From Yarrowia lipolytica (Eukaryota; Ascomycota; Dipodascomycetes; Dipodascales): a stretch of DNA of 64,000 nucleotides. Every line of letters begins with the position of its first letter. Position 1 is the stretch's first letter. The stretch covers positions 3,603,001 to 3,667,000 of the forward strand of contig NC_090775.1 of the NCBI RefSeq assembly GCF_001761485.1, read 5' to 3'. A program made the translations under genes and the position numbers. The notes under the pieces are model-generated. The model was not told the DNA's origin, searched no databases, and saw only the letters and a list, made by a program, of their open reading frames with translations. Positions 29,111 to 63,575 of this stretch are shown here, piece by piece.

Positions 29111-30296
29111 TGTGGTGTAAATTAATAATAGAAGGAAGACGCGTGAGCTTCATGCACTTCATGTGCATGCCAGTTGGTTATAGGATGAAACTTAATTTAC
29201 AGTACATGGAGACCCAGCGAATCTGTGCCATAGACTGTGGTAACAAGAGCTATACGATCTCGGACCGTTCGATACACAATTAATATTCTATGGATATTAA
29301 TTAATCATCGAATACGTGCAGTACTTGTAGTCTATGTTAACATTGGTTAAATCCATCATGCGTTGGAACTTCCTATTGTGACGTGTGTATGTGAGCGTAC
29401 TATATGGAGACGCGACGATAATATGGCTCTCTCGAAATCCGGTACTTTATGCATTTGATGGTTTAATATGTGGGTATTAGTGTCTCGGGGTCAACGATAT
29501 GAAACCTATTGGATTGGTAGACACGCGTTTTCTCGTATAGCCAAGCTTGTGGGGATTTTCCAGACTCTGGTACAATGTGTACGCGCGATACCCTTGGGTC
29601 CGACCAGTCGCTGTTCCACTTTGTTGGGGCTATCTTATTTATGCACTTTCGGTTCATGTCTTAACCGGCATAATCTACCTAACAAATTCCTGGTTAGCCT
29701 TCAATATCCCTACTTGTGGTGTTGTCGAACCATACTGCATGTGCCAGGTTTGATAGAGACAGTAGCAAGCGTAAAAGGCGGCCGAGGCCACCGAGAGAAC
29801 AGCGTAGCAGGGCGCGTATTTTTATTATTTTATTATTTTATATAATAACCCTAGGTAAAGTTTGTTAAGGATTAGTTGGGTTAGCTGGAATCAGTGGGGT
29901 GCTGATTCTGGCAGTGGAAAAAACTGGAGACTGGAGTGGCGTTTTCCCGATGAACGAACAAACACGCGAAGCTATGTGGACCAACATACAACACGGACTG
30001 AACCAGGTTTTTTTATGATTTTTTTACTGGAAATAGGTACGTGCCAAGTTGGACCATGACACTAAACGTGTTTAATTAGTAATATTCGTGTAAGCGTACA
30101 TTCATTTCAAAGGTTATTCTTTCACAGCAAAGTTATAATTAAATGAATGTATATGCAGAAAAAAAAAAAAAAGATATTGGAAGTCATGGCATTAAATGGC
30201 AAGAATTTGCAATGATCGGTTTTGGGTACTGTGTCTATATAAGACACCATCAGATACACCCTCTAGATATCCAATTATCAACCAACCCAACCAACA
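29111..30296. other. Intergenic CoA-transferase - secreted Cys-rich protein
   Basis: No convincing gene is seen. It contains AT-rich palindromic words near 29280-29310 (TTAATTAAT types), an A-run near 30160-30173, and the promoter of the next gene. Confidence 0.55.
30236..30242 (+). promoter_or_regulatory. TATA box of the secreted Cys-rich protein
   Basis: TATATAA 55 bp before the ATG, matching the spacing at the permease (51) and formate dehydrogenase (56) genes. Confidence 0.6.
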
Positions 30297-53517: not shown

Positions 53518-54184
53518 TTGATAATGGTTTGATTCGTGTAATAATAGACAATGACCCGTTGTCAGGGCAGTACTCTCCACCCTGTGTATACCAATACAAA
53601 CAAAAATGAACGGGTCTTCATAGAGTGAGAAGCTTGTATATAACGAACGCCTGAGACTTTATGAGAAAGAAGGTCTCCCTAAATACAGTATTTCGGGGGT
53701 AAGCAGCTAGATATAATCATCTGGACGTGTCTCATGAAATCCAGCTTCTTGTGGTTCACTCGTAACGTCTTGCCAGGATCGTCAAACGAGATGGCTTGTT
53801 GGATGTGTAGAGGGCCCAGCAGCTTGTAAAGTGACTTGGAAATAAGCAGCACCCTTATCTGTCGAGGGACAGCCTCACTGACGTCCTTTTTTCTTTTTTT
53901 TCCCGTACTTTTCAGCTATAACCGTGTTAAATCCACATATCTGACCCGGATTCGGGGGTTCAGAAGAGCTTCTGATAATTGTGTTTGTTGATTCCCTTCA
54001 CTTCCTCCTCTGGACCAGATAAATACAAAATATCAACCGTCAAACATTGCAAATTGTAGGGAATTATAAAAAAAATTATAAAATATTTTTTTTATTCTAA
54101 TGATTCATTACAGCACAGCAAAAAAAATTGGGAAAAATTGTTTTAAGCTGCTGTAGACAAAATCATTGTAAATCTGCATCTCTA
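53518..54184. other. Intergenic GPC1 - tRNA-Leu
   Basis: No gene is seen. The AT-rich part from 54058 to 54150 holds a tRNA-associated A-tailed repeat (listed separately). Confidence 0.6.
54086..54113 (-). repeat. A-tailed tRNA-associated repeat, copy upstream of tRNA-Leu
   Basis: The minus strand reads GCTG, then TAATGAATCATTAGAATAA, then an A-run. It lies 72 bp upstream of tRNA-Leu with the A-run pointing away from the tRNA. It shares its whole 23-base core with the copy at 61524. Confidence 0.8.
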
Positions 54185-54284
54185 GGCAACCTGGCCGAGC
54201 GGTCTAAGGCGCCAGGTTAAGGCTAACACCTTAACGAATATCCTGGTCTCTTCGGAGGCGAGAGTTCGAATCTCTCGGTTGTCA
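54185..54284 (+). tRNA. tRNA-Leu(AAG), intron-containing
   Basis: The acceptor stem GGCAACC pairs with GGTTGTC. The D-arm is TGGCCGAGCGGTCTAAGGCG. The anticodon stem CCAGG/CCTGG encloses TT-AAG-G plus an intron of about 18 nt. A long type II variable arm (CTC-TTCG-GAG) and the T-loop TTCGAAT follow. A long variable arm and AAG anticodon identify leucine. An oligo-T terminator follows at once. Confidence 0.95.
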
Positions 54285-54983
54285 ACTTTTTTGGCTGACT
54301 CTTCTATTGACGTCGGCTTTTATCATGCATTTGTCTTAAGTACTTCTTTTTCATTGATTTGAGGTGTGTTCTGTCGATGTCATCATATAGTACAAGTAGT
54401 GTCTCACTACCGAGCTTCAAATGCTTGGAAGTTACGCTACTGTATATCTGGCCAACCATCGATTTACTTGTATAGTGTTATGTTGAAGAACAAGACGCTA
54501 TAGACACACAGTATATCTACAGGCACTTGTACGCAATGAATGGACGCCGTATACTGTTCAAATGTTTGATATTCAGTATCACCAGCTCACATCTACAAAT
54601 ACTCCACTCCCACATGCCGGAGCCGCACGAACTTATGAGATCAACTTGTGCTCCTTGTACAAGTACCGGTACAAGTACCTGTTCCTATAGATCTGCGTGA
54701 TCAAATGCAGGTTGCACACAGAACAACAACAAGAGAGTACAACACCATCAAGTGAAATCTAATATGCTGCCACACACTGATGAGAGACACCGCTTCTATG
54801 ACATGATTGAAATGAGTTACAGTAGGATGGAAAGACTGGTCGTAGCTAGGTACAAGGATGTGGGGAGGTATGCGTTTATTAGTTCATAGACCACATGGTC
54901 TTTCCATGGGTTAATATCTCGTATAAATGTCCAATACCAGCCACTCTCATTGTATACCACTGCTGCCTGCCTCACGTCCCGTT

Positions 54984-55202
54984 TCACGGGTCATACGTGC
55001 GGCTGAACTCTACAACTTCCGTGCTGTGCGGCTCATCATCAAGTAGCCTTTCATTCTGTTGAGCATCCCGTTGTGATACAGAATATGATCCACATGTCCA
55101 TCTCTTCACCACGACATCAAGTGACACGAAAACGACACATAGCAGCGCAAGATACGACGAAAAATACCCAGTGATTTCAGCAAGAAATGTACACTCAATC
55201 AT
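54984..55202 (-). CDS. Possible 72-residue single-pass membrane protein (doubtful)
   Basis: An ATG-started frame with one hydrophobic segment (about 12-30: YFSSYLALLCVVFVSLDVVV) and a polar tail with an acidic dileucine (NERLLDDEP). Codon usage is mediocre and the family is unknown. It sits in the upstream region of the formate dehydrogenase gene on the opposite strand. It could be a chance frame. Confidence 0.2.
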   Translation of the reverse strand: MIECTFLAEITGYFSSYLALLCVVFVSLDVVVKRWTCGSYSVSQRDAQQNERLLDDEPHSTEVVEFSRTYDP

Positions 55203-55356
55203 GATACCATAACGAGGTCACTAGCCTTTCAAACCACCACCTCTAGATGACATCAAGAACGCATCACAGTGCATGTCATGCACCTCTCGTCACCCACAAC
55301 CGGGTCAAGGACTACGGAAATCCACTTGAACGATACCCGAAGCGTCTCGGGGTATC

Positions 55357-55363
55357 TATATAA
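55357..55363 (+). promoter_or_regulatory. TATA box of the formate dehydrogenase gene
   Basis: TATATAA 56 bp before the ATG at 55419. Confidence 0.65.
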
Positions 55364-55418
55364 GGCACCCATGGAACCCTGTTGATTCCTCATTCAAACA
55401 CGCACACGAACAAACACT

Positions 55419-56516
55419 ATGAAGGTCCTTCTCATTCTCTACGACGCCGGCTCCCACGCTGTTGATGAGCCCAAACTACTCGGATGCACCGAGAACGAGC
55501 TCGGTATCCGATCATGGCTCGAGTCCCAGGGCCATACTCTGGTAACCACCTCTTCCAAGGATGGCGATGACTCTGTCCTCGACAAGGAAATTGTCGACGC
55601 CGATGTCGTCATCACCACTCCCTTCCATCCCGGTTACATTACCCGAGAGCGAATTGCCAAGGCCAAGAACCTCAAAATATGTGTTACTGCAGGTGTTGGT
55701 TCCGACCATGTCGACCTTGATGCCGCCAACGAGCGAGACATTGCCGTTCTCGAGGTCACTGGTTCCAACGTCCAATCCGTCGCTGAGCACGTCGTCATGA
55801 CCATGCTCGTCCTCGTCCGAAACTTTGTCCCCGCTCACGAGCAGGTCATGGCTGGTGGTTGGGATGTTGCTGCTGTCGCCAAGGACTCTTATGACATCGA
55901 GGGTAAGGTCATTGGTACCGTTGGTGGTGGCCGAATTGGTCAGCGAGTCCTCAAGCGAGTGGCTCCCTTCAACCCTAAGGAGATGCTCTACTACGACTAC
56001 CAAGGACTTTCTGCTGAGACCGAGCAGGAGCTCAACTGTCGACGAGTCGAGAAGCTTGAAGATATGCTTGCCCAATGTGACATTGTCACCATTAACTGTC
56101 CTCTCCACGAGTCTACCAAGGGCCTCTTCAACAAGGAGATGCTCTCTCACATGAAGAAGGGTGCTTGGCTTGTCAACACCGCTCGAGGAGCTATCTGTGT
56201 CAAGGAGGATGTCGCCGAGGCTCTTGCCAACGGCCAGCTTCGAGGCTACGGTGGTGATGTGTGGTTCCCTCAGCCAGCCCCTGCCGACCACCCTTGGAGA
56301 TCGATGCGAAACAAGTACGGCGCCGGTAACGCTATGACCCCACACATATCTGGTACTTCCATTGACGCCCAGGCCCGATACGCCGAGGGCACCAAGAACA
56401 TTCTCGAGGTCTTCTTCTCCGGAAAGCAGGACTACCGACCCCAGGATATCATCTGTATCAACGGTCACTACGGTACCAAGGCTTACGGCGACGACAAGGA
56501 GCACGCCAAGAAATAG
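55419..56516 (+). CDS. FDH1: NAD-dependent formate dehydrogenase
   Basis: The 365-residue cytosolic enzyme oxidises formate to CO2 with NAD+. It is a D-isomer-specific 2-hydroxyacid dehydrogenase. Its Rossmann motif GGGRIG is at 169-174. Asp193 in YYDYQ sets NAD rather than NADP preference. Catalytic or binding residues are present: Asn117 ([11 protein letters not shown]), Arg256 (NTARGA), Asp280 (GGDVW), Gln285 and His309 (TPHISG). Length equals that of Candida boidinii-type enzymes. There is no PTS1 (C-terminus HAKK). Very strong codon bias and a close TATA box indicate high, probably inducible expression. I recall that Y. lipolytica carries several FDH paralogues, so the symbol marks the family, not one locus. 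An antisense frame is a shadow. Confidence 0.95.
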
Positions 56517-56590
56517 ATAATATTCATTAACATACAAATACAGTCTACAGTCCTATATCGATTCGGTCGCTTCGAGTTACTGTAGGTCTT

Positions 56591-56611
56591 GTACTTGTTT
56601 TGTACAAGTAC
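56591..56611. terminator. Inverted repeat downstream of formate dehydrogenase
   Basis: GTACTTGT and ACAAGTAC form 8-bp arms around a 5-base loop, 75 bp after the stop codon. It may mark the transcript end region or simply be another member of the GTAC/TACAAGTA word family common in this DNA. Confidence 0.3.
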
Positions 56612-56775
56612 GATACTCGTACGCAAATCCAATAGTCTCATACGACTAAAGTGGCCTGCAGCAAGTCAAACACTCATTAATCAGAAGAACTAGAATGGCG
56701 CGTTTTCAGAAGCATTTGTACCAACAAAATGAACCACAGTTTTAGTACATTGGAGCAAAAAAGATTTGCAAAAAA

Positions 56776-56864
56776 AGAGGACGACAGGACTCGAACCCGC
56801 AGCCTTTGGAGGACGTCGTTCTGGAGAACCGAAATCCAATGCGCTACCATTACGCCACGTCCTC
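56776..56864 (-). tRNA. tRNA-Arg(UCG), intron-containing
   Basis: Acceptor GAGGACG pairs with CGTCCTC. The D-arm is TGGCGTAATGGTAGCGC. Anticodon stem TTGGA/TCCAA encloses TT-TCG-G plus an intron of about 17 nt. The T-arm is GCGGG-TTCGAGT-CCTGT. The T-arm and anticodon loop match eukaryotic tRNA-Arg(UCG). It reads CGA, the dominant arginine codon in the genes of this window. A T-run follows the 3' end. Confidence 0.95.
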
Positions 56865-58003
56865 ATTGTGATTTTTATTTCTGCTGAAATCTGACAGCCA
56901 CATTTTGACATATGCTTATGTGAGCCGGGAAATATTATTTTTTACCTGAAATGTATATCCATAGAATTTTTATAGATAAAAGTCCTAGAATAATAAAAAA
57001 AAAAAAAAAAGGGTCTAGTATAAAAGAAAAACCAACGTGTTGGCCCATGCCTAAATAAACACGCTGACGACTCTGATGAATGAAACTATGAAATATATAT
57101 AAAAAAACCACCTCTTCGCGGTCGCTACCCTTTGAATATAAAAAAACAAAGAAAAAAATAAAATAGAGGAGGAATAAGAGGACATCCCAAGCACTACTGT
57201 CATACGCTCTTCTGCAAACACCCGAATCCGAGTCCGATGTGTGGGTTTGACATTGCTGAGATGTATTTCCCTTGAACCCTTGAACAAAAAAAAAACAAAA
57301 CAAAACAAGAAAAACAGGCCATACACCCGTCATATAGGCGGGATCGCAGTAAGAATTGCCGCTGATATAGCATATTCCAATAACAACCTTGAAAGAACAT
57401 GTTTTGAGGGCGTTGTCTTGCACATTTGACTAATCAACTCGATACAGTGCCGTGAAATTTCGAATTGTACCATACTGACAGTACCAAAATTGTGATGCAA
57501 GTTTGTACGAGAACGAGTACTGTAGCTGTAGCATGGTTTATACCACGAGTTGCTGGACCCACTGTGATTACTAAAACATAGCCAACCATTCATATCCACA
57601 TGATACAGCAGCAGTTAGCAGCAGTTGGAACTCATGCGCACCGTCTTGAATATGAGCACGGCTGAGTTGAACAATCAAGGTGAGAGGGTGGTAAATAAGT
57701 ATAAGAGGAATTCCAGAGGTAGCTGCCAAATCTATATACCTCTAAGGTATCTGCCACCACCTTTGCAACCTGACAGCTCGCCACGAGAGAAAAATTTCGC
57801 AAGCTACCACTCCCTACCCTTGCCCAGCTCATTACTGATTAGGTTCGTCCAGCAGGTAAAAAAATCTTGTGATAACGTTACGTGATTAGAGACGACACGA
57901 CTACAAGTAGACGCAAAGGATTCCTCTAGGAGCTGACGGAAACGATAGACGAACATTCACCCAGCAACTTGTTAAACACCGCGTCGACCACCTCACATTC
58001 AAA
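56865..58003. other. A/T-tract-rich interval tRNA-Arg - FUN30
   Basis: No gene is seen. Several A-runs on the + strand (56995-57010, 57100-57170, 57288-57315) lie on the 5' side of tRNA-Arg. The first is preceded by CTAGAATAATAAA, a diverged form of the tRNA-associated repeat in the same polarity. Confidence 0.6.
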
Positions 58004-60766
58004 ATGAAAGACCAGCGAGTCCAGGTGCCTGCATCGCCCTCGCAGTCCCAAGCAAACGCGTTTTCGGCTCTCTTTGCACCTTCTGACAAGAACTCCCTCT
58101 CCAGCTTTGCCTACAACCCTTCGAAACCGGCATCCAATGGACAGAGACCCTCGGCAGCAACTCCCGCAGCCTTCACTGAAGAGCAGAAGCAGCGCCTGCA
58201 ACGACTGAAGCCCATGTTCAACCAGCTGCCCCTCGTCAAGCTGAGAGAAGCAGTTGCTAACAGCACCGATTTCGACCGAGCTGTGGCATACCTTCGACGA
58301 CAGGGTAGCATTCCATCTTCTTCTATAAACTCCGCGCCAACCCATCGAAAGCCTGCTTCACTGGTCAATCCGTTGGCTTTCCTCAACCCTTCTGTCACCA
58401 CCAAGCCTGCCCCTCTGTCAACCAAACGGGAGGTTTCCAAGTCCAAGAGTATCAGAGAGAAATGGAAAAAGGAGGAGCCTAAAGCTGAGGACGATCTCGT
58501 TGTCATGGAAGACAAGCCTAGTGCACCCAAGAGAAGGCTGGTGCAGGCAAAAGACCGAGCAGGATATACCCCTCAGCCCACACGGTCTCCCACTCCATTG
58601 TCTCCTGTGTCCATTTCTCGAGACACTCCCATGGATATCGATGAAGCAGAGGCCGACGAATCTGACGACTTCTCTGAGAAGGAAGATGTCGACCCTGGCT
58701 TCGATCTCAGAGTGTTGGAGTTCCTCAACACCTCTTCTCAGAGAGACCTCATCGACCTGTCGTCGTGTTCCCAGAAGGTCGGTGAGCTCATGGTCAAGAA
58801 CCGACCCTACAAGAACCTGCTGCAGGCCCAAAACGTTGAGTTTTCTGACTCGGAATCCTCATCTACTGAGAAGAAGCGGGGACGAGGAGGCCGAAAGCGA
58901 AACGCCGGAGAACGTATTGTTGATGCCGTCTCCGCTACTCTTCGAGGCTACGAGGCGGTGGACTCGTTGATCCAGAAGTGTGACGTCTTGGGTAACCAGG
59001 TGGCTGCCGATATCAAATCTTGGGGTGTGGATATTTTTGGAGCTAAGGACGGAGAGGGTGTTGACATTACAGACATAGACGAGGACGTTGTCAAGAAGTC
59101 GACGGTCAAGTTCCTCACCGAGAAGCCCTCTATTCTCAGTGACGATCTTGTTCTGAAGGACTACCAGCAGGTTGGAATCAACTGGCTGTATCTGCTCTAC
59201 AAGAAACGGCTATCTTGCATTCTGGCCGATGAGATGGGTCTCGGAAAGACCTGCCAGGTCATCTCTTTCATGGCTCTGCTGAAGGAGCAAGGAGAACACG
59301 AGGGTCCCCATCTTGTCGTGGTGCCTTCTTCGACACTGGAAAACTGGCTGCGAGAGTTCCAGAAATTCGCACCCTCTCTAGTTGTCGAGCCTTACTATGG
59401 CTCCCAGAACGAACGCGCCGAGATGCGAGAGACTCTGTCCGACCCCGAGAATAAATACGACGTCATTGTGACCACCTACAACCTGGCTTGTGGCACCAAA
59501 TTCGATGTGTCCTTCCTAAAGTCCATCAAATTTAATTGCTGTGTTTACGATGAGGGCCATATGCTGAAGAACTCTCAGACTGACCGATACAACAAGCTAA
59601 TGCGACTCAAGGCCAATTTCCGACTTTTGCTGACAGGTACTCCTCTGCAGAATAACCTCCGGGAGCTTGTGTCTCTGCTTGCATTTATCATTCCGTCTCT
59701 ATTTGATGGTTGTAAGGACGATTTGGCAGAGATATTCAAGCACAAGGCCACCACTAATGACGCCTCTTCACACATGCCTCTCTTGTCACAGCAGCGAGTT
59801 AACCGTGCAAAGACAATGATGACTCCATTCATTCTGCGACGAAAGAAGGAGCAGGTGCTGAAGCATCTGCCTCCCAAGACTCACGAAGTCGCATACTGCC
59901 ATCTTTCTCCTGATCAACAGGCCATTTACGACGAGCAGATGGAGCGAATGAGACAGATGCGACGAGACAGAGCTGCTGGCAAGCCTTCCTCTCGAGTTGG
60001 AAACCCCCTCATGCTTCTACGTAAGGCGGCTCTTCATCATCTGCTTTTCCGACGAAAGTTCGACGATGACACTCTCAAGAGCATGTCCAAGGAGATCATG
60101 AAGGAGGAGCGGTACTACGATGCTAACCGAGACTACATCCGAGAGGATATGGAGGTCATGAGCGACTTTGAGCTAAACAGATTAGCTCTCCAGTTCCCCA
60201 GCATCGAGAAGTATGCTCTGGAAGAGGAGCCATGGATGGACGCTGCCAAGGTTAAGAAGTTGGCCGAGATGCTGCCTATCATGAAGGAAAACAATGATAG
60301 AGTCCTCATTTTCTCGCAGTTCACCCAGTGCTTGGACATTCTTGAGTCTGTTCTTAACACTCTGGGAATTGCATTTCTCCGCCTGGACGGCCAAACCCCC
60401 GTCGAGGCCCGGCAAGACATGATCGACAAGTACTATGAGGAGACTGATATCACCGTCTTCCTGCTCTCTACCAAAGCTGGAGGGTTTGGTATTAACTTGG
60501 CATGTGCTAACACTGTTATCATTTTCGATCTTTCGTTCAACCCTCATGACGATAAGCAGGCCGAGGATCGAGCTCATCGAGTCGGTCAGACTCGGGACGT
60601 CCGAGTCATTAGACTGGTGTGTAAGGGTACTGTGGAGGAGAAGATTCTTGAGCTCAACAATACCAAGCTGGCTCTGGACAAAAGTGTGTCTGGTGAGGGT
60701 GGTGAAGAGGAGGCCAAGAAGAACGAGTCCAAGATCGAGGAGATGCTGATGGCGGATGACGAGTAG
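58004..60766 (+). CDS. FUN30: SNF2-family chromatin remodeller Fun30 (SMARCAD1/Fft3)
   Basis: The 920-residue nuclear ATPase of the Fun30/Etl1 subfamily slides or exchanges histones and supports silencing and DNA-end resection. A CUE-like ubiquitin-binding helix set lies at about 62-103 (MFNQLPLVKLREAVANSTDFDRAVAYL). An acidic/basic linker with Ser-Pro sites (TRSPTPLSPVS) follows. The ATPase has DEMGLGKT (409-416), DEGH (516-519, the subfamily's form of the DEAH box), LLTGTPLQNN, and a C-terminal helicase half ending HRVGQTRDVRVIRLV. Length is somewhat shorter than S. cerevisiae Fun30. The ATG at 58004 is the first in frame. It is intronless. Confidence 0.95.
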   Translation: MKDQRVQVPASPSQSQANAFSALFAPSDKNSLSSFAYNPSKPASNGQRPSAATPAAFTEEQKQRLQRLKPMFNQLPLVKLREAVANSTDFDRAVAYLRRQGSIPSSSINSAPTHRKPASLVNPLAFLNPSVTTKPAPLSTKREVSKSKSIREKWKKEEPKAEDDLVVMEDKPSAPKRRLVQAKDRAGYTPQPTRSPTPLSPVSISRDTPMDIDEAEADESDDFSEKEDVDPGFDLRVLEFLNTSSQRDLIDLSSCSQKVGELMVKNRPYKNLLQAQNVEFSDSESSSTEKKRGRGGRKRNAGERIVDAVSATLRGYEAVDSLIQKCDVLGNQVAADIKSWGVDIFGAKDGEGVDITDIDEDVVKKSTVKFLTEKPSILSDDLVLKDYQQVGINWLYLLYKKRLSCILADEMGLGKTCQVISFMALLKEQGEHEGPHLVVVPSSTLENWLREFQKFAPSLVVEPYYGSQNERAEMRETLSDPENKYDVIVTTYNLACGTKFDVSFLKSIKFNCCVYDEGHMLKNSQTDRYNKLMRLKANFRLLLTGTPLQNNLRELVSLLAFIIPSLFDGCKDDLAEIFKHKATTNDASSHMPLLSQQRVNRAKTMMTPFILRRKKEQVLKHLPPKTHEVAYCHLSPDQQAIYDEQMERMRQMRRDRAAGKPSSRVGNPLMLLRKAALHHLLFRRKFDDDTLKSMSKEIMKEERYYDANRDYIREDMEVMSDFELNRLALQFPSIEKYALEEEPWMDAAKVKKLAEMLPIMKENNDRVLIFSQFTQCLDILESVLNTLGIAFLRLDGQTPVEARQDMIDKYYEETDITVFLLSTKAGGFGINLACANTVIIFDLSFNPHDDKQAEDRAHRVGQTRDVRVIRLVCKGTVEEKILELNNTKLALDKSVSGEGGEEEAKKNESKIEEMLMADDE

Positions 60767-60975
60767 CTATGTAACGGACGATAAATAAACGCATAAGATC
60801 TGAACTTAGAAACATTAATAGATTATTTACACTTTTTTGGGTACTTTTACTCGCGCGAGTATTGGGATGTATGTACTGTACTTGTAGGTAAGACCTTCAA
60901 AAGAAACACATCATGACTTTGCAGGACGAGATACCAGCTACCCAAGGAAAAAGAGAGCAAGCCAGAAATAAAAAG

Positions 60976-61048
60976 TGATCATGCCGAGGATCGAACTCGG
61001 AGCCTCCCCGGTGTGAGCGGGACGTGATAACCATTACACCACACGACC
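60976..61048 (-). tRNA. tRNA-Val(CAC)
   Basis: A 73-nt gene without intron. Acceptor GGTCGTG pairs with CATGATC. The D-arm is TGGTGTAATGGTTATCAC. Anticodon loop CT-CAC-AC lies between TCCCG and CGGGG, and the T-loop is TTCGATC. It is the only one of the six tRNA genes here with no intron. Confidence 0.95.
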
Positions 61049-61093
61049 TTTTTCACGTGACATAATAAGAATGATTGCCATGCAATTATGGAT

Positions 61094-61172
61094 AATGAAT
61101 CAATAGAATAAAAAAAAGAATGAATCATTAGAATAATAAAAATCATTGCAATGAATCATTAGGATAAAAAAA
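61094..61172 (+). repeat. Three A-tailed tRNA-associated repeats upstream of tRNA-Val
   Basis: Copies at 61094-61117, 61119-61143 and 61150-61172 each read AATGAATCA(T/A)TAG(A/G)ATA followed by an A-run. The first begins 46 bp from the 5' end of tRNA-Val. All A-runs point away from the tRNA. Confidence 0.85.
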
Positions 61173-61245
61173 GGATTATTGTCCAAACCTTGGGGAATTA
61201 AGGATGTCCATCAAAAAAGTGGAAAGGGTGTACTCATGAGTAGTA

Positions 61246-61338
61246 CTCCCCCACAGGGGCTCGAACCCTGGACATTTCGGTTGCAATGCCTTTAGGGTTA
61301 CTAAAAGCCGAACGCTCTACCAACTGAGCTATAGGGGA
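61246..61338 (-). tRNA. tRNA-Lys(UUU), intron-containing
   Basis: Acceptor TCCCCTA pairs with TGGGGGA. The D-arm is TAGCTCAGTTGGTAGAGC. Anticodon stem TTCGG/CCGAA encloses CT-TTT-A and an intron of about 20 nt. The T-loop is TTCGAGC. This is typical of eukaryotic tRNA-Lys. Confidence 0.95.
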
Positions 61339-61383
61339 TTTTTTCATATTTGGTAATTCTGGGCTACCAAATCTGAATTTCGC

Positions 61384-61562
61384 AAATCATTAGCTGAATC
61401 ATTAGAAAAAAAAATTATAGAATCATTAGAATAAAAAAAAATAAATAGCTGTAGTAAATCATTAAGAATATATATATTATATAAAAAAGCGCCAATAACC
61501 CGGCTTACTAGGGTATATATATAGCTGTAATGAATCATTAGAATAATAATAATAATAAAAAA
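61384..61562 (+). repeat. Cluster of A-tailed tRNA-associated repeats upstream of tRNA-Lys
   Basis: About five copies or partial copies, at 61384, 61394-61413, 61420-61440, 61456-61470 and 61524-61562. The last has the full GCTG plus TAATGAATCATTAGAATAA core followed by (AAT)n and A. The first begins 46 bp from the tRNA-Lys 5' end, the same distance as at tRNA-Val. A-runs point away from the tRNA. Confidence 0.85.
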
Positions 61563-61802
61563 AGCAGCGCACACCGAAACGATTTGTAAGTGCATGATTT
61601 ATCGAACGCCAATTACTACACAATACAACTGGCTCGATAGTCATGTGCATAGTCGTATATAACGGCAACAGGCAACAACGAGTTTAATAAAACAGCTTGT
61701 GTCTGTATAGACTTCCAATTCAAAATTACGCTACAAGCACGACGCCTCAGGCTCAGTCAAACGAACTGAGGTGCCCTTTATTCTGCCACTATGAGTGGTG
61801 TC

Positions 61803-61815
61803 GCTTGGCAGAATC

Positions 61816-61852
<37 letters not shown>

Positions 61853-61908
61853 TTGACATTGTGTAGAGACATAGGGGGGTGTAAGAATAAAGTGGGAGCT
61901 TCGGCGCC
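61803..61908 (+). pseudogene. Fragment of 25S ribosomal RNA
   Basis: About 106 bp match the highly conserved large-subunit rRNA segment from GCTTGGCAGAATCAGCGG through AGACCCTGTTGAGCTTGACT to GTGGGAGCTTCGGCGCC. From memory it differs from the S. cerevisiae 25S sequence at about four places (two substitutions, two single-A insertions). Sequence on both sides is unrelated, so this is an isolated piece, not an rDNA unit. Confidence 0.9.
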
Positions 61909-62100
61909 GCCAGAAGGAACTCCAGAGACGCGTAGATCTTGTCATGGGGAAGGGTGTCGACCACGTGATCCAGACCATCAGTGAGCTCGTACAGCGAGAC
62001 GTCCAGCTAAGGACCCACAGTTGTGTAGAAGATCTGCTGCTGCTCGGTGTAATCTTTTAAAAAAGACCCAGGCAGACATGAGGGGACACGGTGCCAAACA
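61909..62100 (-). pseudogene. Broken piece of a protein-coding gene, identity unknown
   Basis: The minus strand keeps one frame across the interval with good Yarrowia-type codons: FLKDYTEQQQIFYTTVGP, one TAG stop, then LDVSLYELTDGLDHVV, DTLPHDKIYASLEFLLAAP. It has no start, no proper end, and abuts the 25S rRNA fragment directly. The protein family is not recognised. Confidence 0.5.
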
Positions 62101-62220
62101 AGTTAGAGGCACAAATTGATACTCGTGGCATTAATTACGTACAAGTAGATATTAGATACTTCTCTTATTTTTAGTTCATCTGAGATGCTTTTTTTTTACT
62201 TTGTTGTTTAGCCTACTTGT

Positions 62221-62254
62221 AGGTATTGAAGATCATAAGTATTATTGATGTGAT
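62221..62254 (+). repeat. 34-bp direct repeat, left copy
   Basis: Begins AGGTATTGAAG and ends TTGATGTGAT. It is identical over 34 bp to the segment at 63050-63083. Confidence 0.95.
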
Positions 62255-62312
62255 ATAGCTAGTTAATTAACAACTTACAACCCACTTCTAGGGAAAACGC
62301 GTTCCGATAGTT

Positions 62313-62338
62313 AGCACACACCAGAAAGGGTGTGTGCT
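62313..62338. repeat. Perfect hairpin, 10-bp arms
   Basis: AGCACACACC and GGTGTGTGCT form perfectly paired arms around the 6-base loop AGAAAG. It lies between the two 34-bp repeats. Confidence 0.9.
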
Positions 62339-62543
62339 TGCTCATTCACCAGAAAAGAGATTCTAAGATCAGTGGATAAAAACTATCTACAGGATGGAAC
62401 ATCTCGTCTACGAACCCAGCTTGATTCCTCTCATCACTATGTGGTGACATCTCATCATTATGTGAGGAATTAGCCAGGTATTACCCACCGGGTATTACCT
62501 TCAACAGTAGGTGTGGGGGAATACTCCAGGGAAATAGACATTG

Positions 62544-62590
62544 GTTTTTTTTTTTTTATTTTTTTTTTTTATTCTAATGATCATTTCAGC
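62544..62590 (-). repeat. A-tailed tRNA-associated repeat
   Basis: The minus strand reads GCTGAAATGATCATTAGAAT and then two long A-runs separated by TA-type bases. It is 5' of tRNA-Tyr (about 820 bp away), with the A-run pointing away. Confidence 0.75.
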
Positions 62591-62769
62591 TAACTCGAAG
62601 CCCCATTAAACAAATTGTTATACAAGCACATCGCGATTGGGATTCGCGATTCGGTTGTTCAGGGAGAGCGCGCCATGACATTTTTGCTCCGCGTGTTCAA
62701 TGTATTCTTTCCTGTTCCAATCTCTTGACCAGTTAAATATATCATCAAATTTTTATTTAAAAAAGGGGG

Positions 62770-62796
62770 TTTTTTATTCTAATGATTCATAAAAGC
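62770..62796 (-). repeat. A-tailed tRNA-associated repeat
   Basis: The minus strand reads GCTTTTATGAATCATTAGAA, then TAAAAAA. It is about 610 bp upstream of tRNA-Tyr, in the same polarity as the other copies. Confidence 0.75.
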
Positions 62797-63049
62797 TATA
62801 TACCTAGAAAGCCGGGTTTATTGGCCGTTCAATAAATCATACACTTCTGGAATCTTTGCGATATGACGCTGCTGCGGCGCTGTCCGGTTGGTTTGTCCGA
62901 CGCTTCGTCTAGTTGGAATGTCATTGTCGTGGTCTCGTGGTAGTGAATCATGGGCTAACCAACTAATTTTTTAATGGTGAAGGGCTACCTACGACTCAGG
63001 TAGAACCTCCAAAACTCTGGTTGCAAGCTTTCTTCAATTAAATACTACA

Positions 63050-63083
63050 AGGTATTGAAGATCATAAGTATTATTGATGTGAT
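63050..63083 (+). repeat. 34-bp direct repeat, right copy
   Basis: Identical to 62221-62254, with starts 829 bp apart in the same orientation. Confidence 0.95.
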
Positions 63084-63408
63084 CGTGTGTGTCCTGTTTT
63101 GAGATCTTTGCGGCATCGGGGGATTGAAGGTGGGGGTAGCAACGTGTTTGAGTTGTTTTTTTTTTTCTTTTTTTTTTTCCATAATTCCAATTAATCTTGA
63201 GACGTCAGCGTGTATATTTAGCCGTGCAGCAGACCTCACGAGTACGTCATGTGTACCAGCCATCGTAATAATGCTCCTAGAGTAGAAAACAACTTCGGCG
63301 CTCATTCCTCTCCGCGCTTCCGCCTCATAGCCACGACCACCATGTCGCGATAATTACTAAGCCGAACTTACATAGTAGAGTCTAGAATTTTCGAATTTTC
63401 GAAATATT

Positions 63409-63501
63409 CTCCCGGTGGCCAAGCTGGTTTAAGGCGCGAGACTGTAATGGTATTAAAAATTTGTAATCTTGAGATCGGGCGTTCGACTCGCCCCCGGGAG
63501 A
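63409..63501 (+). tRNA. tRNA-Tyr(GUA), intron-containing
   Basis: Acceptor CTCCCGG pairs with CCGGGAG. The sequence is very close to yeast tRNA-Tyr (GGTTTAAGGCGCGAGACTGTA; TTGAGATCGGGCGTTCGACT). Anticodon GTA with an intron of about 19 nt sits in an anticodon loop closed by CGAGA/TCTTG. Confidence 0.97.
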
Positions 63502-63575
63502 GGATATTGTTTTGTCACAGCTTTTTTGTTTCTTTATTCTTATGTAAGATCGTGGTGCAAAAAGATTAGGAGAGT

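What the first reader, a model, noticed from the sequence alone, without database searches (positions are those of the whole stretch)
54086..62796. Polarised A-tailed micro-insertions on the 5' side of tRNA genes
Seen: about ten copies of a short sequence (core TAATGAATCATTAGAATAA, often preceded by GCTG) end in A-runs. Every clear copy is 5' of a tRNA gene (Leu, Val, Lys, Tyr; a diverged one at Arg near 56980). The A-run always points away from the tRNA, and the first copies start 46, 46 and 72 bp from the tRNA. Known: Dictyostelium TRE5 non-LTR elements insert about 50 bp upstream of tRNA genes, and LINE copies are often 5'-truncated and A-tailed. Inference: these are extreme 5'-truncated tails of a tRNA-targeting LINE (Yarrowia has Ylli), or a small Pol III-linked repeat. 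Fixed distance plus fixed polarity is hard to explain by chance AT-richness.
Basis: partly seen in the sequence, partly recalled or inferred. Interest (0 to 1): 0.8.

Follow-up and report, generated by a model that had tools for sequence, protein, structure and literature searches.

The report
Yeast retrotransposon that targets tRNA genes
Short A-tailed repeats beside tRNA genes in this yeast are the broken-off tail ends of a jumping gene, distinct from the known Ylli element, that inserted at a nearly fixed spot upstream of tRNA genes in one direction only, a habit known for this kind of element from social amoebae.

Summary
The 16-base core occurs 189 times in the 20.5-Mb genome at up to one mismatch, against 0 for the reversed pattern. 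Copies lie 5' of, and antisense to, tRNA genes; for 68 of 75 genes the nearest copy starts within 130 bp, median 63. The genome is almost certainly Yarrowia lipolytica (inferred).

Longer copies identify the element: the core is the 3' end of a LINE. Detected copies run from 18 bp to over 1.3 kb, and the long ones carry an ORF2 C-terminus. It is not Ylli: protein identity is 28%, the 3' end differs, and Ylli tails are not near tRNA genes. It belongs to a sister lineage with LINE proteins of Yarrowia sp. E02 and C11. Only broken copies were found here.

Two long relics found by protein similarity alone were then predicted, and shown, to abut tRNA genes. Stacked insertions are ordered by age: the copy nearest the tRNA is the cleaner in 14 of 14 non-tied stacks. 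No target-site duplication was detected.

Best reading: a TRE5-like, Pol III-gene-targeting LINE in a budding yeast. The searches listed found no earlier description. The targeting mechanism is inferred.

The parts
54185..54284 (+). tRNA-Leu gene with intron; target of the first microcopy
   Evidence: read; A-box and B-box matches; missed by ARAGORN and Rfam
54086..54114 (-). microcopy: 23 nt of LINE 3' end plus A-run, 5' end about 70 bp from tRNA-Leu, A-run pointing away
56986..57012 (+). strongly decayed tail (CTAGAATAATAAA...) on the 5' side of the tRNA at 56776-56864
   Evidence: too weak to stand alone
57051..57107 (+). fragment of the LINE 3' region (80% identity over 59 alignment positions to the long copy), antisense to and on the 5' side of the same tRNA
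   Evidence: E 4e-7
60975..61048 (-). tRNA-Val(CAC) gene
61093..61173 (+). stack of three microcopies (61093, 61118, 61149) upstream of and antisense to tRNA-Val; first one about 45 bp from the tRNA
61246..61338 (-). tRNA gene with intron (ARAGORN Leu; probably Lys)
61384..61562 (+). stack of further copies upstream of and antisense to that tRNA; first about 46 bp away; the one at 61490-61546 covers 52 positions of the LINE 3' end
62774..63350 (-). long 5'-truncated copy (551 positions of the LINE 3' end, 81% identity), 5' end 57 bp from the tRNA at 63408
62552..62592 (-). further microcopy, distal in the same stack
63408..63502 (+). tRNA gene with intron (ARAGORN Leu; probably Tyr), target of the 62774-63350 copy

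Best explanation
The repeats are copies of a second, non-Ylli, L1-type non-LTR retrotransposon (LINE) of Yarrowia, truncated to various extents at the 5' end. Shown: they share one 3' end (TAATGAATCATTAGAATAA followed by A's); copies form a series from 18 bp to over 1.3 kb; the longest encode the C-terminus of a LINE ORF2; the 5' end of the nearest copy sits mostly about 50-70 bp upstream of the mature tRNA; the element is antisense to the tRNA, with its A-tail distal; copies accumulate in stacks in which the nearest is the least diverged. Inferred: the element's endonuclease nicked AT-rich DNA just upstream of the assembled Pol III initiation complex, guided by TFIIIB/TFIIIC as proposed for Dictyostelium TRE5-A; the polyadenylated RNA was reverse transcribed from its tail by target-primed reverse transcription; and synthesis often stopped after a few tens of bases, leaving micro-insertions. 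Each new insertion lands at about the same distance from the tRNA and pushes older ones outward. No intact copy was found in this genome, so the family looks extinct in this strain.
For: Genome-wide repeat: 189 matches at up to 1 mismatch, reversed control 0. Of 134 cores in 99 fetched stretches, 98 lie within 600 bp upstream and antisense of an ARAGORN tRNA, 4 in other arrangements and 32 have no ARAGORN tRNA within 600 bp. Of 115 tail-bearing copies aligned to a long copy, 95 are assigned to 75 Pol III genes (ARAGORN tRNAs plus 6 genes added by hand); 68 of 75 nearest copies start within 130 bp, and for those the median is 63 and the interquartile range 58-82. Length and distance are uncorrelated (rho 0.09, p 0.47). 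Of the 20 unassigned copies, 8 have a decayed tRNA or 5S sequence on the expected side and strand; 1 of 118 control pieces gave a weak hit. Set not chosen by the core: around 63 Rfam-scored tRNA genes lie 9 of the 100 listed exact cores within 700 bp, at 8 genes, all upstream and antisense; random placement gives 0.42 (maximum 4 in 2,000 trials). Ylli tails under the same test: 1 of 97, downstream. Long copy L037 encodes an open frame 28% identical to the Ylli ORF2 C-terminus, E 6e-19, 99% to an unnamed public protein (P0001), and 64-73% to P0002, P0012 and P0013, among them LINE-1 ORF2 of Yarrowia sp. E02, in a clade apart from Ylli (100/100). The RT relic at C1:359331-359678 is 71% identical to the E02 protein and 44% to Ylli. 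Protein-first test: the four best relics each have a tRNA at the 5' end; two were checked only after the prediction. Stack order: of 27 stacks counted, nearest copy cleaner in 14, distal cleaner in 0, 13 ties, p 6e-5.
Against: No target-site duplication: flank similarity in 68 copies does not exceed permuted flanks (31 of 200 permutations as high), though Ylli is also reported to lack them (PMC5014426). No family member with an intact RT was found and the endonuclease part was not traced in the relics, so autonomous mobilisation is not shown directly. Of 115 copies, 12 have no Pol III gene or relic detected on the expected side; 2 of those continue a stack already counted, 2 lie at the edge of a fetched stretch, 2 show A- and B-box-like motifs by eye and 6 remain unexplained. 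For 7 of 75 genes the nearest detected copy is 151-981 bp away. Most tRNA genes carry no exact core: 55 of the 63 Rfam-scored ones; 46 of 47 Rfam-scored 5S genes likewise. The median distance (63 bp) is slightly greater than TRE5's 40-54 bp. The fetched copies were chosen by 100 listed exact cores and 30 places of a DNA search; the remaining 89 of 189 matches were not listed. The Ylli branch in the tree is long. One isolate only; no empty sites compared.
Confidence: 0.9

Rival explanations
1. The copies are non-autonomous tails mobilised in trans by Ylli, the only LINE with intact long frames seen in this genome.
For: Ylli has 21 RT-bearing copies, 19 with a 1313-aa open frame. Both families end in poly(A); Ylli is reported, and this family found, to lack target-site duplications (PMC5014426).
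Against: Different 3' ends. Ylli tails are not near tRNA genes: 1 of 97 within 700 bp of the 63-tRNA set, 0 of 97 near the 91 tRNA genes of the fetched stretches. The 5' flanks of 3 of 3 Ylli copies read and the 3' flanks of 4 of 5 show no B-box match; the fifth has one about 0.7 kb away. The repeats grade into their own ORF2.
Confidence: 0.05
2. A SINE or other small Pol III-transcribed repeat with its own defined ends.
For: The first long query gave many alignments starting at the same point (query 95), which looked like a 177-bp unit.
Against: That boundary is the truncation point of the query copy itself; other copies continue upstream into shared sequence and an ORF. Rfam found only tRNA and 5S in the window and the 28 loci scanned.
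Confidence: 0.02
3. Copies spread mainly by duplication of tRNA genes together with their flanks, or are a conserved upstream regulatory motif, rather than by repeated insertion.
For: A few pairs of copies share 45-bp flanks and truncation points, for example C2:829721 and C1:1283351.
Against: The flanks of 68 nearest copies fall into 54 groups, and by my reading the similar ones are mostly further A-tailed tails. Targets are many tRNA isotypes plus 5S; truncation points vary from 18 bp to 1.3 kb. Stacks with A-tails are not expected of a motif.
Confidence: 0.03

Closest known systems
Dictyostelium TRE5 elements (TRE5-A, -B, -C)
   Same: Non-LTR element with oligo(A) tail; inserts about 44-54 bp upstream of tRNA genes in opposite transcriptional orientation; also hits 5S genes (PMC5911963, passages read; PMC5006619, abstract and section 9 read).
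Ylli, L1-clade LINE of Yarrowia lipolytica
   Same: Same genome, related ORF2 (sister lineage), poly(A) tail, 5' truncation, no target-site duplication (PMC5014426, section 41 read).
   Different: 28% identity in the ORF2 C-terminus, different 3' end, no tRNA association.
LINE-1 ORF2 proteins of Yarrowia sp. E02 (P0012) and C11 (P0002, P0011)
   Same: 43-65% identity in the ORF2 C-terminus, same clade as the relics.
   Different: Longer open frames for P0012 and P0011 (1051 and 1087 aa); their insertion sites could not be examined here.
Polysphondylium NLTR-B
   Same: Non-LTR element 39-64 bp upstream of tRNA genes (PMC5911963 table; PMC5006619 section 9).
   Different: Has an RNase H domain and a different lineage by its authors' account; not compared by sequence here.
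Ty3/gypsy LTR elements Tyl3, Tyl6, Ylt1 of Y. lipolytica
   Same: Also target Pol III genes in this yeast.
   Different: [quoted passage not shown] not A-tailed, 5'-truncated insertions.

Membership tests
TRE5-type tRNA-targeting LINE (works like) | inserts about 40-54 bp upstream of mature tRNA | tested here: met
   approximately met: nearest copies at 36-130 bp for 68 of 75 genes, median 63; 43 of those 68 at 45-70 bp
TRE5-type tRNA-targeting LINE (works like) | opposite transcriptional orientation to the tRNA | tested here: met
   109 upstream-antisense against 4 upstream-sense hits in 85 flanks, and 5 and 2 downstream hits in 70 flanks (stretches chosen by the core); 9 of 9 in the set not chosen by it
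TRE5-type tRNA-targeting LINE (works like) | needs B box / TFIIIB contact by ORF1 | not testable with these tools
   needs experiment
TRE family (membership) | ORF2 sequence kinship to TRE5/TRE3 | not tested
   no TRE sequence was fetched; similarity of Ylli to TRE is recalled only
L1-type LINE | ORF2 with RT and C-terminal Cys/His motif | tested here: met
   RT relic 71% identical to Yarrowia E02 ORF2; C-terminal CX2C...HX6C read in L037; relatives carry RVT_1
L1-type LINE | APE-type endonuclease | tested here: inconclusive
   not traced in the relics; in relatives P0009 and P0007 only below the Pfam cut-off (17 and 14 bits against 24.5)
L1-type LINE | poly(A) tail and 5' truncation | tested here: met
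   115 copies: 46 of 30 bp or less, 14 of 31-60, 15 of 61-120, 25 of 121-250, 13 of 251-600, 2 longer
L1-type LINE | target-site duplications | tested here: not met
   no excess over permuted flanks; Ylli is also reported without them, so not treated as disqualifying
Ylli | Ylli 3' end and ORF2 identity | tested here: not met
SINE | defined 5' end with Pol III promoter | tested here: not met
   copies extend beyond the apparent boundary into LINE coding sequence

The most novel reading that the evidence does not exclude
A tRNA-gene-targeting lineage of L1-type LINEs exists in the budding-yeast genus Yarrowia, arisen independently of, or sharing deep ancestry with, the dictyostelid TREs. Two sister LINE lineages live in one genome, one targeted to Pol III genes and one (Ylli) not, so the targeting determinant can be mapped by comparing them. 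The 5' flanks of tRNA genes act as chronological records of its insertions, many of them micro-insertions that ordinary repeat annotation would miss.
Probability: 0.75. Interest if true: 0.8.

Novelty: new variant of a known kind. Interest (0 to 1): 0.72.

Why it matters
Position-specific insertion of non-LTR elements near tRNA genes is listed only for dictyostelids in the table of the review read here (PMC5911963, passages). Finding it in a genetically tractable yeast, beside an untargeted sister LINE, would make it testable which part of the element reads the Pol III machinery. It also accounts for many A-rich stretches upstream of Yarrowia tRNA genes, gives an internal relative clock (stack order), and documents truncation to 18-30 bp as a common outcome of LINE insertion.

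Tried and rejected
Ylli as source: rejected by 3' end, protein identity and tail locations. Target-site duplications: none found. Structured tail RNA: weak, z -1.1, 31 of 200 shuffles as stable. 5S genes as main target: only 1 of 47 Rfam-scored 5S genes has an exact core within 700 bp, and that 5S lies just downstream of a tRNA-Glu gene at C5:3526068; 3 other 5S genes and one 5S relic do have copies. One of the 9 cores (C1:1539828) in fact lies beside such a 5S gene, not beside the tRNA it was counted with. Intact member of the family in this genome: none found. RVT_1 hits outside Ylli, and the fifth-best relic's surroundings, were not examined. Flank clustering suggests that many 'nearest' copies at 76-126 bp have a further undetected tail between them and the tRNA.

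Rows dropped: of 33 stacks at up to 3 edits (Wilcoxon p 5e-5, none favouring the distal copies), 6 were left out: 5 whose distal copies had only 3-edit matches, and 1 that repeats a neighbouring stack. Copies whose nearest distance was over 130 bp (7 of 75) were left out of the median, of the test for target-site duplications and of the flank clustering.

Literature: searches cover open-licence PubMed Central papers only, and I saw listings, some of them capped. In them, and in the passages read, I met no second LINE family of Y. lipolytica and no tRNA-targeting LINE in a fungus. PMC12888388 (passages) lists 9 'undetermined' retrotransposon sequences and at least one uncharacterised retrotransposon that could include it. 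The 2002 Ylli paper was not read; that it reported no insertion specificity for Ylli and kinship to TRE is recalled.


Full report
What the window is. The window lies at C6:3603001-3667000 of a 20.5-Mb, six-contig genome.

The observation. The 19-mer core has 7 matches at up to 3 mismatches in the window, 0 in shuffles. Reading, each clear copy is on the 5' side of a tRNA gene, antisense, with the A-run pointing away. One tRNA-Leu (54185-54284) is missed by ARAGORN and Rfam, probably because of its intron.

Genome-wide test. The 16-mer core has 105 forward and 84 reverse matches at up to 1 mismatch; the reversed pattern has none. The first 100 places, all exact, were listed. I fetched DNA around all 100 and around the best 30 of the 52 places. 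Merged with the window and 10 RT loci, these make 99 stretches with 134 cores at up to 1 mismatch, 100 of them exact. Of the 134, 98 lie within 600 bp upstream and antisense of an ARAGORN tRNA, 4 have another arrangement and 32 have no ARAGORN tRNA within 600 bp. The 4 exceptions resolve: two lie upstream of a 5S gene (L108), one beside a tRNA half-relic (by eye), and one is the third copy of the tRNA-Val stack assigned to the wrong neighbour.

Because those stretches were chosen by the core, I used another set too. Against 63 tRNA genes scored by Rfam (63 of 1,095 candidates), 9 of the 100 listed exact cores fall within 700 bp, at 8 genes, all upstream and antisense; random placement gives a mean of 0.42 and a maximum of 4 in 2,000 trials. 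The other 55 genes have no exact core. One of the 9 really belongs to a 5S gene in between (L018). The same test on 97 Ylli tails gives 1, downstream.

Strand and side controls on the fetched genes (15-mer, up to 2 edits, 500 bp): upstream antisense 109 in 85 flanks; upstream sense 4 in 85; downstream 5 and 2 in 70.

Longer copies. A DNA search with one 281-bp copy first suggested a 177-bp SINE, but that was the truncation point of the query: other copies continue upstream into shared sequence. Copy L037 (C5:3029.0-3030.4 kb) is about 1.3 kb long and encodes an open frame 28% identical to the C-terminus of Ylli ORF2 (E 6e-19). Copies of many lengths share the 3' end. Of 115 tail-bearing copies, 46 are 30 bp or less, 14 are 31-60, 15 are 61-120, 25 are 121-250, 13 are 251-600 and 2 are longer; copies too short to align are not counted. 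The copy at tRNA-Thr C4:2138008 reaches further into ORF2. Relics with RT similarity exist at C1:358.2-360.4 kb and C1:1116-1117.6 kb, broken by stops. No intact member was found.

Which family. Ylli ends in ...ATGAATGTATATGCAG(A)n in 5 of 5 copies read, not in the core. The relic ORF2 C-terminus is 99% identical to an unnamed public protein (P0001), 73% to P0013, 65% to an ORF2 of Yarrowia sp. E02, 64% to a protein of Yarrowia sp. C11 and 28% to Ylli. A tree of the C-terminal region puts it with those proteins, apart from Ylli and its relatives (100/100, where the Ylli row is flagged as long). This is a second LINE lineage.

Position. For 75 Pol III genes with at least one copy, the nearest copy starts within 130 bp in 68, median 63 for those, whatever the copy length (rho 0.09, p 0.47); in the other 7 it is 151-981 bp away. 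Many of those at 76-126 bp seem to have another decayed tail in between. Of 20 copies left unassigned, 8 have a decayed tRNA or 5S on the expected side and strand by BLAST, against 1 weak hit in 118 control pieces; a further copy outside the 115, at C1:324270, has one too. Of the other 12, 2 continue stacks already counted (C6:3703789, C6:2174375), 2 lie at or near the edge of the fetched DNA (C3:2500300, C4:1657583), 2 show A- and B-box-like motifs by eye (C5:2083043, C6:106689) and 6 are unexplained.

A prediction tested. The four best relics found by protein similarity alone each have a tRNA at the 5' end. Two were already in hand: C5:3029121 (tRNA-Pro) and C4:2136640 (tRNA-Thr, with two small tails between). 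Two were fetched afterwards: C4:3124897, where a tRNA-Ser gene starts 18 bp from the last base matched, and C6:3937002, where a tRNA gene starts about 56 bp from the last matched base; both read away from the element. The fifth-best relic (C1:358242) was not examined for a tRNA.

Stack order. Of 27 stacks with tails at up to 2 edits, the nearest copy is cleaner in 14, the distal copies in 0, with 13 ties (p 6e-5). New insertions therefore seem to land next to the tRNA and displace older ones.

What was not found. No target-site duplication; Ylli is also described as lacking them (PMC5014426, section 41 read). No notable RNA fold in the tail.

Mechanism. Shown: shared 3' end with A-tail, graded 5' truncation, fixed polarity, near-fixed distance, ordered stacks. 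Inferred: target-primed reverse transcription at a nick just upstream of the Pol III initiation complex, guided by Pol III factors as proposed for TRE5-A (PMC5911963, passages read), with early abortion of cDNA synthesis.

Known or not. The review's table lists non-LTR elements near tRNA genes only from dictyostelids (PMC5911963, passages). Papers on Y. lipolytica elements name Ylli as the LINE and no other in what I read (PMC5014426, section 41 and passages; PMC9865632 and PMC12888388, passages). Nine searches of the open-licence library (listings seen) showed no description of this family; subscription papers are not covered, so prior description elsewhere is possible.

Noticed in passing
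window 30142-30159 (+): An exact Ylli 3' tail lies in the window (C6:3633142), far from any tRNA gene found in the window; not looked at further.
   Followed up: no
window 62214-62254 and 63043-63083; also the C3:1374186 flank and L123: A different dispersed repeat (TATTGAAGATCATAAGTATTATTGATGTGAT; by eye about 270 bp more, at window 62240-62510, shared with the C3 locus) lies beside these copies; perhaps a solo LTR.
   Followed up: no
window 62774-63350; C4:434620; C5:2083043: By eye, some copies carry many single-base insertions compared with other copies; this could be old decay or assembly error.
   Followed up: no
C4:1127870 and C5:1789670; C2:829721 and C1:1283351: Pairs of copies at different Pol III genes share identical 45-bp 5' flanks and the same truncation point, as if flank and insert were duplicated or converted together.
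   Followed up: partly
C1:324270, C3:1860868, C6:2174798, C1:1529861 and others: Several copies mark decayed or half-deleted tRNA genes, so the element could serve to find extinct tRNA loci.
   Followed up: partly
window 54185-54284, 61246-61338, 63408-63502: ARAGORN misses or seems to mis-type intron-containing yeast tRNA genes here; counts of tRNA genes near copies are therefore lower bounds.
   Followed up: partly
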